Assembly: GCA_024655865.1 (NCBI GenBank)
Contig: JANLFM010000018.1
Location: 1-27,038, forward strand
Direction: 5' to 3'
DNA length: 27,038 nucleotides
Source: Caldisericota bacterium
Lineage (GTDB): Bacteria; Caldisericota; JANLFM01
Part shown: positions 1-27,038 of the stretch, in pieces
Layout: each line of letters opens with the position of its first letter
Numbering within the stretch: the first letter of the stretch is position 1
Made by a program: the position numbers and the translations under genes
Notes under the pieces: generated by a model
Told to the model about the DNA's origin: nothing
The model's database searches: none
Seen by the model: only the letters and a program-made list of their open reading frames with translations

Positions 1-33
1 AAAATCAGAGCGGGATGTTCAGGTCTTGCAATC
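1..33 (+). mobile_element. Right end of an IS110-family copy lying left of the window
   Basis: These 33 bases are the exact reverse complement of 26588-26620, which directly follow the stop codon of the IS110-family transposase at the right edge of the window (and include its last base). By analogy, base 1 should be the last base of a TGA stop of a second, plus-strand transposase copy lying outside the window. The transposase itself is not visible here, so only the shared end is certain. The identity ends at base 33; beyond that the two flanks differ. Confidence 0.65.
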
Positions 34-298
34 ACACATTTTGGTCTTATGAGGAGCACTGAAAGGACTTAGAAATTGAAAGAGGGCTGCTTGGAAATAT
101 TGAGTTCGATTTTGGAGAATTATTTTTGGGTCCCAGGGGTCCAGGAGAAACGAATTCAGGAACAAATTCGCTCAGAAGGAACCCAGTGGAAAGTAGCCCG
201 CCTGAAAGTTAACTTTTCCACTCTGGAAGGCAAATAACTCTCAGTTCGTCAAGGAAGGGACTCAGTGGAAAGTGAGCTCAATTTAAGAGGCCATCTTT
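34..298. other. Intergenic stretch without a recognisable gene
   Basis: I see no credible coding region here. An 11-base direct repeat, CAGTGGAAAGT, occurs at 184-194 and 263-273, each preceded by a similar AAGG-A-C context. The first copy can also pair with an inverted ACTTTTCCACT at 212-222, giving an imperfect hairpin. The stretch lies just outside an insertion-sequence end and may be a mobile-element remnant. Confidence 0.4.
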
Positions 299-691
299 TC
301 AGGAGGCGATCTCAAAGACCCCTCCCAAGAAAACCGCCACCGCACCTCCCACGATAAGGTAGCCCCCGTAATTCAGGCCGCTTATGAAGCTCTGGAAGTT
401 GGTCCAGCTTCCAAAAAGGGACTGCAGTTCTGGGCTTCCCAAAACAAGATAAATGAGGTAGACCATGCCCCCGCCCAGGGCCAGGTGGATTAAGCCCATC
501 ACTTTAGAGGGAGCGATCATCAAAATCAGGGAAAGCCCGGCGGCAGCCAGAGTGAGCCAGAATTTCCAGGAATCTGCACTCGAGGTTCCTTCCCAAAAGG
601 TTGCCGGGTTGGCGCTGAAGAAGGGGAGAAAAAAGCCCACGATCACAGCCACTGATCCTAAAGCTATTAGTACCCTTGCCAGAAATCTCAC
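299..691 (-). CDS. Small four-helix membrane protein, unknown function
   Basis: A 130-residue protein with four hydrophobic stretches, at roughly residues 4-24, 45-62, 66-84 and 106-126, and little else. A loop between helices 1 and 2 is rich in Ser, Trp and Phe. I do not recognise the family. I chose the GTG start at 691 because AGGAGG lies six bases upstream. A longer reading from TTG at 739 is possible, but its first codons are the dispersed repeat at 723-749, so it is unlikely to be real. A promoter candidate at 760-788 places that repeat in the 5' leader. The gene stands alone among repeats and mobile-element traces, so it may be accessory. Confidence 0.6.
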   Translation of the reverse strand: MRFLARVLIALGSVAVIVGFFLPFFSANPATFWEGTSSADSWKFWLTLAAAGLSLILMIAPSKVMGLIHLALGGGMVYLIYLVLGSPELQSLFGSWTNFQSFISGLNYGGYLIVGGAVAVFLGGVFEIAS

Positions 692-722: not shown

Positions 723-749
723 GGGGTCAGGTCTTGCAATCACACATTT
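723..749 (+). repeat. Dispersed repeat, CAGGTCTTGCAAT family, copy 2
   Basis: Reads GGGGTCAGGTCTTGCAAT followed by CACACATTT. The core CAGGTCTTGCAAT is shared with the IS110 ends at 18-33 and 26588-26603 and with the copies at 801-829 and 1359-1385; the copy at 1127-1154 differs by one base. It lies between the promoter candidate and the start codon of the small membrane-protein gene. Confidence 0.75.
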
Positions 750-759
750 CCTTAGGCTG

Positions 760-788
760 ATTTTACCCCATATAAATTTATAAGCCAA
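760..788 (-). promoter_or_regulatory. Sigma-70 type promoter candidate for the membrane-protein gene
   Basis: On the minus strand TTGGCT (783-788) is followed after exactly 17 bases by TAAAAT (760-765). The -10 matches TATAAT at five of six positions and the -35 matches TTGACA at four of six. Transcription from here would carry the repeat at 723-749 in a leader of about 60 bases. Confidence 0.45.
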
Positions 789-800
789 ACGTCGAACCTC

Positions 801-829
801 GGGGGTCAGGTCTTGCAATCCAACAATTT
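801..829 (+). repeat. Dispersed repeat, CAGGTCTTGCAAT family, copy 3
   Basis: Reads GGGGGTCAGGTCTTGCAAT followed by CCAACAATTT, in the same orientation as the copy 78 bases to the left. The CCAACAAT tail matches the flank of the IS110 end at 26588-26620 on its own strand. Confidence 0.7.
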
Positions 830-1126
830 CGCTGGAGATTCCCCCTGGCCCAGCCTTAGCGCAGGGAATTCCGGGCTCTGGGTCTGAGGGGAGAGGTTTT
901 TTCAGGTTTTCTACTCAAGTGTTCTCTGCGGAAGCTCCTGTGGCCCAGCGCGGTTACAGGATGCTCGCGAGGAACCCGATTCAAGCGGGATATAAGCATA
1001 ATTTTAGGTTTCAGGGGAGCGAGTTTTAGGCTCCAAGGCCCGATAATTAATTTGCAAAAAGCTTTATAACCAGGGCAAACTTCCTCGCAAGAATCTCCCC
1101 CGCAAGGCGGGAGCGAAGTGACAACA
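830..1126. other. Intergenic stretch without a recognisable gene
   Basis: The only open frame here (minus strand, about 98 codons, 856-1152) has an Arg/Pro/Leu-rich composition, no ribosome-binding site and starts inside a repeat, so I do not call it. No RNA gene is apparent. The stretch is bordered on both sides by copies of the dispersed repeat. Confidence 0.4.
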
Positions 1127-1154
1127 GGGGGTCGGGTCTTGCAATTACACATTT
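1127..1154 (+). repeat. Dispersed repeat, CAGGTCTTGCAAT family, copy 4
   Basis: Reads GGGGTCGGGTCTTGCAAT followed by TACACATTT. It differs from copy 2 by an A-to-G change in the core and a C-to-T change just after it. Same orientation as copies 2 and 3. Confidence 0.65.
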
Positions 1155-1330
1155 TCTTCTTTTAGGCCTTCTACGCGCTTCCAGGGAATGCCCTCAGGCA
1201 CCATCGCTACAGAGTGAAGACTGCCGCAGTGTTACTCCTTATCTGCGTTGCTCCTTATGTTGCTCTTTATAGCTCTTTATTAATTCTTGGCTAATTGAAA
1301 GCTTCCCAGCAAAGAAATCTTCCTTAGCCT

Positions 1331-1353
1331 AAAAAGCAATAGGAGCCTATTAG
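1331..1353 (-). terminator. Possible Rho-independent terminator after clpC
   Basis: On the minus strand, 40-65 bases past the clpC stop, AATAG and CTATT can pair around a GCTC loop and are followed by GCTTTTT. The stem is short and AT-rich, so this is weak. Confidence 0.3.
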
Positions 1354-1358
1354 AACTG

Positions 1359-1385
1359 AAATGTTGCATTGCAAGACCTGACCCC
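1359..1385 (-). repeat. Dispersed repeat, CAGGTCTTGCAAT family, inverted copy 5
   Basis: On the minus strand this reads GGGGTCAGGTCTTGCAAT followed by GCAACATTT. It is opposite in orientation to copies 2-4 and lies 11 bases beyond the clpC stop codon. Confidence 0.7.
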
Positions 1386-10934: not shown

Positions 10935-11570
10935 ATGAAAGCTGTGGAGCTTTTAACCTACGCTATAACGGTTTTTGTGATGCTTTTCACGGTCGTGGAC
11001 CCCATCGGCCTTTTGCCGGTTTTAATGGGGCTTACAGGTCCTCTTTCCCATAAGGAAAGGGGGCGAATCGTATCCAAGGCCGTGTTGGTAGCTGCAAGTG
11101 TCATGGCCTTTTTTGCCCTTTTTGGGAAGTTCATCCTGCTTTATTTCGGGATCAGCCTGGGGTCCTTCTACATTGCCGGAGGGGTCCTCCTCTTTCTGAT
11201 CTCCATTGACATGATTTTCGCCAGGCCTTCCCGGGCCAGGGAAACGCGAAAGGAAGAGGAAGAGGGGAAGCGCCGCCTGGAGGAGATCCACGTTTTCCCC
11301 CTGGCTATCCCTATGCTCTCCGGGCCAGGAACCATCGCCACCGTGATGCTCTTGAAATCCCTGGCTGAGGGGGATCCCTTGCGGCTTCTAATTTTCGCCT
11401 TGAGCACGGTTCTGGTGCTCGTGGCTTCCTGGGCCATACTCAGAGCTGGAGCTTTCATCCTGGGGCGCATTGGTCAAACCGGGGTGCTGGTGATCAGCCG
11501 TCTCATGGGGATTCTCCTTTCCGCTTTAGCGGTTCAGTTCGTGGTAGACGGAATAAAAAGCCTTTTCTAA
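10935..11570 (+). CDS. MarC-family integral membrane protein
   Basis: A 211-residue protein with about six transmembrane helices and the family pattern FTVVDPIGLLPV near the N-terminus, with AIPMLSGPGTIATV after a charged cytoplasmic loop (about residues 95-125). MarC-type proteins are predicted transporters; the older link to multiple antibiotic resistance is not supported for most members. GGGG lies upstream of the ATG at suitable distance. The stop codon abuts the first copy of a 27-base repeat that could serve as a terminator. Confidence 0.9.
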   Translation: MKAVELLTYAITVFVMLFTVVDPIGLLPVLMGLTGPLSHKERGRIVSKAVLVAASVMAFFALFGKFILLYFGISLGSFYIAGGVLLFLISIDMIFARPSRARETRKEEEEGKRRLEEIHVFPLAIPMLSGPGTIATVMLLKSLAEGDPLRLLIFALSTVLVLVASWAILRAGAFILGRIGQTGVLVISRLMGILLSALAVQFVVDGIKSLF

Positions 11571-11595
11571 AAATGGGGACTGTCCCTATTTTTTC
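11569..11595 (+). repeat. 27-base repeat around GGGGACTGTCCC, copy 1; possible terminator
   Basis: Identical over 27 bases to 11640-11666. The block has A-run, TGGGGACTGTCCCTA, then a T-run. AATGGGG can pair with CCCTATT around an ACTGT loop (one G-T pair) followed by T residues, so it can act as a terminator for the MarC gene, whose stop it overlaps by two bases. Similar GGGGAC-GTCCC blocks occur as dispersed repeats in other genomes (recalled, not checked). Confidence 0.7.
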
Positions 11596-11639: not shown

Positions 11640-11666
11640 AAAAATGGGGACTGTCCCTATTTTTTC
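11640..11666. repeat. 27-base repeat around GGGGACTGTCCC, copy 2
   Basis: Exact direct copy of 11569-11595, 71 bases further on. It contains the gcvPB stop codon (11657-11659) and its last two lysine codons, so the end of that gene is made of repeat sequence. Between the copies, GCTGC and GCAGC can pair and CTGATCAG is a palindrome. Confidence 0.75.
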
Positions 11667-25997: not shown

Positions 25998-26398
25998 TTA
26001 AAACTTAAAAGGTTTTGGGCCGGGGTAAGATGTGGGGGGAAATTGTGTAGGGGCAAGGTTGGGCCGGGTTGGATGCCCTAAACCCTGGTGTGGTCGTTTT
26101 CCATTATACACCTCATGGGTCCATTTCCTTAAGGCAGCTCTCTTAAAGCAGCTTTCGTCTCCTCCAGGTTATCCTCATCCTCATAGAAGGCCCAGAACTC
26201 CTCCCTGAGGGTGCGGTTCATCCTCTCCACTTTCCCGTTCAGCTTGGAAGAACGAGGGTAAGGGAAGGGGGGTGGCTGAGGAGGTATAGAGATCACTGGG
26301 GAGTTCTCTTCCTTTTGGGGGTTTTGGGCCTATCTTCCAGGGACTGGAGGTTCTTGGGATTAAACCTTCTTTTCCAGCGGAATTTTCTGCTTGGCTCC
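25998..26398 (-). pseudogene. Decayed DDE transposase (IS481-like), frameshifted and internally deleted
   Basis: Three broken pieces of one transposase can be read on the minus strand. The N-terminal region reads RWKRRFNPKNLQSLEDRP then KTPKRKRTPQ and meets TGA at 26293-26295, where relatives have Trp (TGG). The C-terminal integrase-core piece reads KLNGKVERMNRTLREEF, WAFYEDEDNLEETKAALREL and stops at 26129-26131. It continues in another frame as RKWTHEVYNGKRPHQGLGHP down to TAA at 25998. The middle, which should hold the first two catalytic acids, is missing. It is clearly inactive. The family call (IS481-like versus another IS3-superfamily group) is from motif memory. Confidence 0.65.
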
Positions 26399-26587
26399 TA
26401 CCTCTATGACGATTTTGCCTTTCCTTGAAAAAATCTCTGGTTGAAGAGCAGCTGGAGGCTAATTTAATACGGGGTTAATAGGGGGGCGCGTAAGTGATCG
26501 GAGTGGGCCTTGGGGGTCTGGGCCTCTTTCCTGGGTTGAAGATCGCCGCCAGCACCGCTCCCGGATTTAAGAGTTGTTGGATTGTTG
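26399..26587. other. Intergenic stretch without a recognisable gene
   Basis: I see no gene, RNA or clear repeat here, apart from a short tandem TTGTTGGATTGTTGGATT at 26574-26591, which runs into the IS110 end. It lies between the decayed transposase and the IS110-family end. Confidence 0.4.
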
Positions 26588-26620
26588 GATTGCAAGACCT
26601 GAACATCCCGCTCTGATTTT
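26588..26620 (-). mobile_element. Right end of the IS110-family element
   Basis: The 33 bases that follow the transposase stop codon on the minus strand are identical to window bases 1-33 on the plus strand. They end in GTTCAGGTCTTGCAATC, so the element end or its target carries the same CAGGTCTTGCAAT core as the dispersed repeats at 723-1385. The exact element boundary cannot be fixed from these two copies. Confidence 0.65.
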
Positions 26621-27038
26621 CAAGTGGTCCCTACCCCCTCTCGCATTCTGTAGCTCCTCCTCTCTTTGAGCATTGACCAGATTACACGCACCAGATGTCG
26701 CCCCAGAGAGCGGATGGCCTGGTTGTGTTTCTTTCCTTCCCTCCTTTTCCGCTCGTAATATGCCCGGGACTCAGGAACCTGCTCCATGTGCCGAGCTACT
26801 GCAACCATCATGGCCCCTTTTCCCCTCCAGTTCACCTGACGGGGCCTCTTCGTTCCCTGGAACTGACCCGATTGGTGGGAGAGAGGGCACATGCCCAGAT
26901 AAAGGGCCAAGCTCTTTTCAGAATCAAATCGCTTTAGGGTCCCGATCTCTCCCGCAAGCTCAGCGGCAGAGATCTTGCCGAAGCCGGGAATGGAATGCAG
27001 GATGCGGGCGAGCTCCGATTCCTGAACCAGGCTCTCCA
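26620..27038 (-). CDS. IS110-family transposase, C-terminal part (runs off the window)
   Basis: The last 139 codons of a transposase open through the right edge; the start is beyond the window. ILHSIPGFGKISAAELAGEI, then LKRFDSEKSLALYLGMCP, SHQSGQ and the ending around RVIWSMLKERRSYR are the C-terminal transposase_20 region of IS110/IS1111 proteins, which holds the conserved serine region. Reading upstream to the window edge shows no stop, so this part is intact. The N-terminal DEDD (RuvC-like) domain is outside the window. The short, 33-base distance to the shared end fits the IS110 group, in which the bridge RNA is encoded on the other side of the gene. Confidence 0.88.
   Translation of the reverse strand, partial: ESLVQESELARILHSIPGFGKISAAELAGEIGTLKRFDSEKSLALYLGMCPLSHQSGQFQGTKRPRQVNWRGKGAMMVAVARHMEQVPESRAYYERKRREGKKHNQAIRSLGRHLVRVIWSMLKERRSYRMREGVGTT

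What the first reader, a model, noticed from the sequence alone, without database searches (positions are those of the whole stretch)
723..1385. Dispersed CAGGTCTTGCAAT repeat may be the bridge-RNA target of the IS110-family element
Four repeat copies lie between 723 and 1385, and both IS110 ends carry the same core GTCTTGCAAT. IS110-family enzymes (IS621 is the known example) use a bridge RNA with a CT core dinucleotide and often insert in REP-like repeats; CT sits in the middle of GGTCTTGC. The flank after the first IS end (CACACATTT) matches repeat copy 2, and that after the second (CCAACAAT) matches copy 3, as expected if the element inserted into repeat copies.
Basis: partly seen in the sequence, partly recalled or inferred. 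Interest (0 to 1): 0.6.

Follow-up and report, generated by a model that had tools for sequence, protein, structure and literature searches.

The report
RNA-guided jumping gene in RAYT repeats
The repeat marks the ends of small mobile elements moved by a RAYT-type transposase, and a second, unrelated jumping gene (IS110 family) inserts precisely into it, apparently because its own guide RNA base-pairs with the repeat; relatives in many bacterial phyla carry guides whose letters change together with their insertion sites.

Summary
The repeat (GGGGTCAGGTCTTGCAAT...) occurs about 43 times in this 1.8-Mb genome and bounds an intact RAYT transposase gene and inverted-repeat units of 258-505 bp. Both contig ends are right ends of IS110 copies broken off in assembly. 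With the left ends recovered from other contigs, 7 of 7 IS junctions lie in the repeat at one point: GGGG-TC-AGGTC. The core is TC, not CT. The non-coding RNA region upstream of the transposase (contig C44) has the two-loop bridge-RNA layout. Its first loop carries GGGGGUC (left target guide) and GACUUGA (right guide, 7 pairs with TCAGGTC, one wobble). In about 30 relatives (50-70% identical transposases, many phyla) the guides covary with the insertion flanks, right (p about 5e-5) and left (p about 5e-5), also after one-per-cluster thinning. In at least five relatives the IS sits at the end of a RAYT element; in 10 of 51 the hit repeat has an inverted partner downstream (0 of 51 in shuffles). 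This is a new clade-level example of a known kind, IS110 bridge-RNA elements targeting REP-type repeats. RNA expression and transposition are untested.

The parts
1..18 (+). Right end (left-donor side) of one IS110 copy: AAAATCAGAGCGGGATGT; the rest of the copy is lost at the contig edge
   Evidence: Identical to the right end at 26603-26620(-) and on contig C14; conserved AGCGGGATGT in relatives
19..20 (+). Core dinucleotide TC of this IS copy
   Evidence: Left ends read GGGG-TC-TATCATC, right ends GGGATGT-TC-AGGTC
19..41 (+). Right half of the target repeat (TCAGGTCTTGCAATCACACATTT)
723..749 (+). Intact RAYT-type terminal repeat (unoccupied IS110 target GGGGTCAGGTC at 723-733)
802..828 (+). 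Intact RAYT-type terminal repeat (unoccupied target at 802-812)
1128..1154 (+). RAYT-type terminal repeat with one change in the target (GGGGTCGGGTC); left end of a 258-bp inverted-repeat unit
1358..1385 (-). RAYT-type terminal repeat in inverse orientation; right end of the 258-bp unit 1128-1385 (unoccupied target at 1375-1385)
   Evidence: both ends of the unit align with units on C44 (76-84% over 63-72 nt)
26583..26602 (-). Right half of the target repeat next to the second IS110 copy (core TC at 26601-26602)
26603..27038 (-). 3' part of an IS110 element: C-terminal 138 aa of the transposase (26623-27036) and right end; cut by the contig end
   Evidence: Pfam Transposase_20, E 5.3e-18; 60% identical to a complete 393-aa relative

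Best explanation
The dispersed repeat is the terminal repeat of a RAYT (REP-associated tyrosine transposase, Y1) element and of its non-autonomous inverted-repeat derivatives. An IS110-family element inserts into it by bridge-RNA guidance. Proposed mechanism: the circular IS (junction GGGATGT-TC-TATCATC) expresses the RNA encoded upstream of tnp. [quoted passage not shown] The second loop binds the IS's own ends (CGGGAUGGU with GGGATGT-T; UGUAGA with TCTATC). The DEDD recombinase then exchanges strands at the TC core and inserts without duplication. Shown by sequence: junctions, core, guide matches, guide-target covariation, two-loop RNA architecture, RAYT association. Inferred from IS621 and ISEc21: transcription, RNA binding, the recombination chemistry.
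For: 7/7 junctions in the repeat at one position. The target 11-mer GGGGTCAGGTC has 34 genomic copies, 32 of them continuing as the repeat; reversed control 3. Guides lie in the first loop of the upstream RNA; both guides in the right order arise in 93 of 20,000 shuffles. Right guide versus right flank across relatives: observed 65.5 against 46.8 for shuffled pairing, p 5e-5, n=24; left guide p 5e-5, n=30; right donor guide p 2e-4. The right-guide and left-guide signals hold at one element per 90/80/70/65% protein cluster. Exact cases: L082 CUUGUGA/TCACAAG, L079 UGCCUGA/TCAGGCA, L087 CAGACUUGA/TCAAGTCTG. Consensus fold: two stem-loops with internal loops, 23 of 41 pairs with compensatory change. 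The transposase relative has DEDD and Transposase_20 domains and matches IS621 and ISCro4 chains. RAYT: NF047646 above its cut-off, flanked by the repeats in inverse orientation. IS directly before RAYT genes in L068, L078, L115, L123 and at a RAYT-element end in L086.
Against: No expression, binding or transposition data. The middle of the element is not assembled in this genome (about 51 N-terminal and 138 C-terminal residues only). The left guide has G at position -5 where three of the four native left flanks have T. Covariation stops after about position 7 of the right target, and several relatives pair only 4-5 bases or need a bulge. No empty site was found: the same-genus genome lacks the repeat. 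The lowest-energy fold lets the two target guides pair with each other. Rfam has no match, even at E 1.
Confidence: 0.92

Rival explanations
1. AGGTCTTGCAAT is simply part of the IS110 element's own end, so its presence at all copies says nothing about target choice.
For: All three native right ends carry it, one with a single change further on (AGGTCTTGCATT on C14).
Against: The repeat occurs about 40 times without any IS. Left ends carry the other half, GGGG-TC. In relatives the sequence after the conserved GGGATGT-TC varies (TCACAAG, TCAGGCA, TCAAGTC ...) and follows the guide. Flanks of the three native copies diverge after the repeat.
Confidence: 0.02
2. The IS lands in these repeats because of protein recognition or their exposure as RAYT cleavage sites; the guide match is a by-product.
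For: REP-type repeats attract several unrelated IS families (PMC1525189).
Against: Base-by-base covariation of both guides with both flanks in independent insertions and a uniform core position. Covariation alone cannot exclude an extra contribution of protein or DNA structure.
Confidence: 0.05
3. The repeats are classical REPs/REPINs (GTAG-tagged palindromes).
For: RAYT gene bounded by inverted copies, inverted doublets, many copies.
Against: Twelve copies folded as 36-nt DNA give 0 to -3.4 kcal/mol and no shared stable hairpin; no GTAG/GTGG head.
Confidence: 0.1

Closest known systems
IS621 (IS110 family, E. coli) and its bridge RNA (PMC11208160)
   Same: DEDD plus Transposase_20 recombinase; RNA upstream of tnp with target loop then donor loop; left guide reads like the top strand and right guide pairs with it; targets a REP-type repeat
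   Different: Core TC instead of CT; target GGGGTCAGGTC instead of ATCAGGCCTAC; right guide about 7 nt instead of 4; transposase only distantly related (phmmer E 1e-8); target is a RAYT-element end without the REP palindrome
ISPpu9 / ISPpu10 / ISPa11 (IS110/IS1111 elements in Pseudomonas REPs, PMC1525189)
   Same: All copies sit in REP-type repeats at one position, as here (7/7 junctions)
   Different: Pseudomonas REPs are palindromic; ISPa11 is of the IS1111 type with the RNA downstream; guide covariation across phyla was not described there
ISEc21 seekRNA (IS110 type, PMC11187229)
   Same: Upstream non-coding region, bottom-strand match before top-strand match; targets another mobile element
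   Different: Its target is a coding site in IS3-family transposase genes, not RAYT ends
RAYT elements (PMC2817692)
   Same: Y1 transposase gene bounded by inverted copies of a dispersed repeat
   Different: Terminal repeat GGGGTCAGGTCTTG lacks the GT(A/G)G head and palindrome; that paper found its RAYTs only in gammaproteobacteria

Membership tests
IS110-family insertion sequence | Transposase with N-terminal DEDD RuvC-like and C-terminal Transposase_20 domains | tested here: met
   Relative L051: PF01548 E 7e-21, PF02371 E 8e-18, NF033542 164 bits over cut-off 140. Native copy: Transposase_20 E 5e-18 and the start of DEDD on C44 (25.5 bits, below cut-off); the middle is not assembled
IS110-family insertion sequence | Long non-coding region upstream of tnp (IS110 type), not downstream (IS1111 type) | tested here: met
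   About 260 nt upstream, about 18 nt after the stop codon
IS110-family insertion sequence | Site-specific insertion with a dinucleotide core at both junctions | tested here: met
   TC at 4/4 left and 3/3 right ends; TC or rare variants in relatives
Bridge RNA (IS621 kind) | Two stem-loops with internal loops for target and donor | tested here: met
   Consensus of 23 sequences, 23/41 pairs with compensatory changes
Bridge RNA (IS621 kind) | Target loop complementary to both strands of the target, covarying with insertion sites | tested here: met
Bridge RNA (IS621 kind) | Donor loop complementary to the IS ends | tested here: met
   TCTAC/GUAGA and TCTAT/AUAGA switch together, p 2e-4; left donor guide CGGGAUG matches the right end by inspection
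Bridge RNA (IS621 kind) | RNA is expressed, bound by the recombinase, and required | not testable with these tools
   Needs bench work
RAYT element | Y1 transposase of the REP-associated type flanked by inverted dispersed repeats | tested here: met
   NF047646 86.1 bits over cut-off 80; repeats on both sides in inverse orientation
Classical REP | GT(A/G)G head followed by a G+C-rich palindrome | tested here: not met
   No head, no stable hairpin in 12 copies
Rfam RNA family | Match to a curated covariance model | tested here: not met
   No match up to E 1

The most novel reading that the evidence does not exclude
A cross-phylum IS110 clade specialised on RAYT elements: its bridge RNAs keep re-tuning to the terminal repeats of whichever RAYT element lives in the host, so the two mobile elements co-diversify, and the IS may hitch-hike when the RAYT or its derivatives move.
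Probability: 0.4. Interest if true: 0.6.

Novelty: new member of a known kind. Interest (0 to 1): 0.45.

Why it matters
It shows, from sequence alone, a naturally varied set of bridge-RNA guides matched to their insertion sites in one IS110 clade with a TC core and a longer right guide. That is useful for the rules of guide-target pairing (core, guide length, wobble, bulges). It also links two kinds of mobile element, an RNA-guided IS and a RAYT whose ends are its landing sites, outside the pseudomonads and enterics where REP targeting was described.

Tried and rejected
CT in GGTCTTGC as the core: rejected, since left and right ends overlap only at TC upstream of it. The repeat as part of the IS end: rejected, since intact copies exist without IS and relatives' flanks differ. 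Classical palindromic REP: no hairpin. Viral contigs: no relative of the IS. Plasmid records: only IS110 proteins below 60% identity, best about 29%. Empty sites in same-genus and same-family genomes: none; the repeat is absent from G001, G002 and G004 and present only twice in G003. Right end of the G037 relative (L051): not found after its transposase, so its guide (predicted target GGGG-TC-GCGAATCG) could not be checked against a right flank. Rfam: no match. Literature search for the repeat sequence: seven papers, by their titles unrelated except possibly one on Thiobacillus denitrificans; none was opened.

Full report
Observation. The repeat is present as described and is far above chance: six exact GTCTTGCAAT in the window against 0.09 expected, four of them in 723-1385, and 43 copies of the extended motif in the genome with none for the reversed control. 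The window is a whole contig (C9). It begins and ends with the same 38-nt sequence in inverse orientation: AAAATCAGAGCGGGATGT, then TCAGGTCTTGCAAT.

What the repeat is. On contig C44 a copy lies 37 nt before an intact 280-aa gene that starts MARPLRIEYPG (L012:7908-8750), and two inverse copies lie downstream. The protein is a REP-associated tyrosine transposase (NCBIfam NF047646, 86.1 bits, cut-off 80; Pfam Y1_Tnp, E 4e-14). Elsewhere the repeat forms inverted pairs bounding units of 258-505 bp. Two of these (277 bp each) are 85% identical over their length, and the unit 1128-1385 of the window shares both ends with them. So 723-1385 is a cluster of RAYT-element ends with at least one non-autonomous unit. 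The copies do not form a stable hairpin and have no GTAG head, so they are not classical REPs. The repeat is absent from the same-genus genome, which suggests a recent arrival or expansion.

The IS110 element. The window's right edge encodes the C-terminal 138 residues of an IS110 transposase (Transposase_20, E 5e-18). A search for the right-end sequence gave three copies (C9 start, C9 end, C14 end), all followed by CAGGTCTTGCA. The left end was recognised at the end of C44, where a DEDD domain begins. Its sequence TCTATCATCGGATTTATG occurs four times, always after GGGG and always near a contig edge (sequences). Overlaying both sides on the intact repeat leaves one reading: target GGGG-TC-AGGTC, core TC, no duplication beyond the core. 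All seven junctions obey it. The 11-mer GGGGTCAGGTC has 34 genomic copies, 32 of them continuing as the repeat, so a guide of this length is enough to explain the preference.

The guide RNA. The roughly 260 nt between left end and start codon fold better than shuffles (z -3.1). The consensus of 23 relatives has two stem-loops with internal loops and 23 of 41 pairs with compensatory changes. The first loop reads CUCUGGGGGUCAGC ... UCGACUUGA-AAUGCCGC. GGGGGUC equals the left target plus core (it pairs with the bottom strand), and GACUUGA pairs with TCAGGTC on the top strand with one G-U. The order and strands are those reported for IS621 (PMC11208160) and for the IS110-type seekRNA (PMC11187229). 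Both guides in that order arise in 93 of 20,000 shuffles of the same RNA. The second loop carries CGGGAUGGU and UGUAGA, matching the IS's own ends GGGATGT-T and TCTATC.

Relatives. A scan of 84,980 species genomes gave 68 loci, about 33 of them with a nearly complete element, in Zetaproteobacteria, Gallionellales, Nitrospira, Atribacteria and others; shorter matches include Bipolaricaulota. Left and right ends are conserved (GGGG-TC-TACCAT; AGCGGGATGT-TC), but the flanks are not identical. Right guide and right flank covary: 65.5 pairing points against 46.8 in shuffled pairings (positions 4-7, n=24 distinct guides, p 5e-5). Left guide and left flank likewise (n=30, p 5e-5). The right donor guide switches with the IS's left end (GUAGA with TCTAC, AUAGA with TCTAT; p 2e-4). 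The right- and left-guide signals remain when only one element per protein cluster is kept (right: n=15-28, p 5e-5 to 0.006; left, from position -5: n=12-24, p 5e-5 to 3e-4). The insertions lie in different hosts and contexts, so shared descent of the flanks is an unlikely cause. Examples: L082 CUUGUGA with TCACAAG; L079 UGCCUGA with TCAGGCA; L087 nine pairs with TCAAGTCTG; L058 left guide GAGGGUC with left flank GAGGGTC. Some pairs are weaker (4-5 bases, or better with one bulge).

Target identity in relatives. In L068, L078, L115 and L123 the IS right end is followed within about 30-90 bp by the start of a RAYT gene; in L086 the hit repeat and its perfect inverted partner bound a RAYT gene. 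L058 has a RAYT within about 320 bp, and in L080 the left flank lies in a RAYT reading frame. The reconstituted target has an inverted partner (at most 2 mismatches in 15) within 2 kb downstream in 10 of 51 loci, against 0 of 51 shuffled controls. So the ends of RAYT elements and of small inverted-repeat units are a recurrent target of this IS110 clade; for the other loci the nature of the target is open.

Shown and inferred. Shown by sequence: junctions, core, guide matches, covariation, RNA architecture, RAYT association. Inferred from IS621 and ISEc21: circular intermediate, RNA expression from the joined ends, RNA-protein complex, strand exchange.

Known or new. IS110 elements in REP-type repeats and bridge RNAs are known (IS621; ISPpu9, ISPpu10, ISPa11 in PMC1525189). 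I found no report of this clade, its TC core or RAYT-end targeting in the papers searched, but subscription literature, supplements and ISfinder were not searchable. I file it as a new member of a known kind. The open, more interesting reading is specialisation on RAYT elements with guide co-diversification.

Noticed in passing
window 11569-11595 and 11640-11666: Second perfect 27-nt direct repeat (AAAAATGGGGACTGTCCCTATTTTTTC, 71 bp apart), with an inner near-palindrome (GGGACTGTCCC); similar GGGGACAGTTTATTTTC is seen near a repeat copy on C5 (L005). Possibly the end of another RAYT or MITE family.
   Followed up: no
L012:9468-9671 (C44, about 50 nt beyond the RAYT element's outer right repeat): T-box leader (Rfam RF00230, 113 bits) directly after the RAYT element end.
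   Followed up: no
L031 1480-1503 (C60:89114-89137): One IS left flank carries a partial repeat (GGGGGTCAGGTCTTG) about 20 bp before the occupied GGGGG-TC. This cluster follows DNA resembling window 299-410, so a homologue of the gene at 299-739 appears truncated there.
   Followed up: partly
L023 (C7:1944-2759) and L022 (C8:22734-22859): Remnants of other IS110-family elements: one with an in-frame TAG, one a short fragment lying between two repeat copies.
   Followed up: no
L051 (G037:C1), right guide CUCGAUUCGCGA: Same-phylum relative with a different right guide; predicts target GGGG-TC-GCGAATCG; its right end is missing after the gene.
   Followed up: partly
window 26130-26260: Short remnant that by eye resembles an integrase/DDE transposase gene near the second IS110 copy.
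   Followed up: no
L103 right flank: The occupied repeat belongs to a near-perfect palindrome of about 58 bp (TCAAGTCTACGCATTACGCATTATTCGCTGAATAATGCGTAATGCGTAGACTTGACCC), a REPIN-like minimal unit.
   Followed up: no
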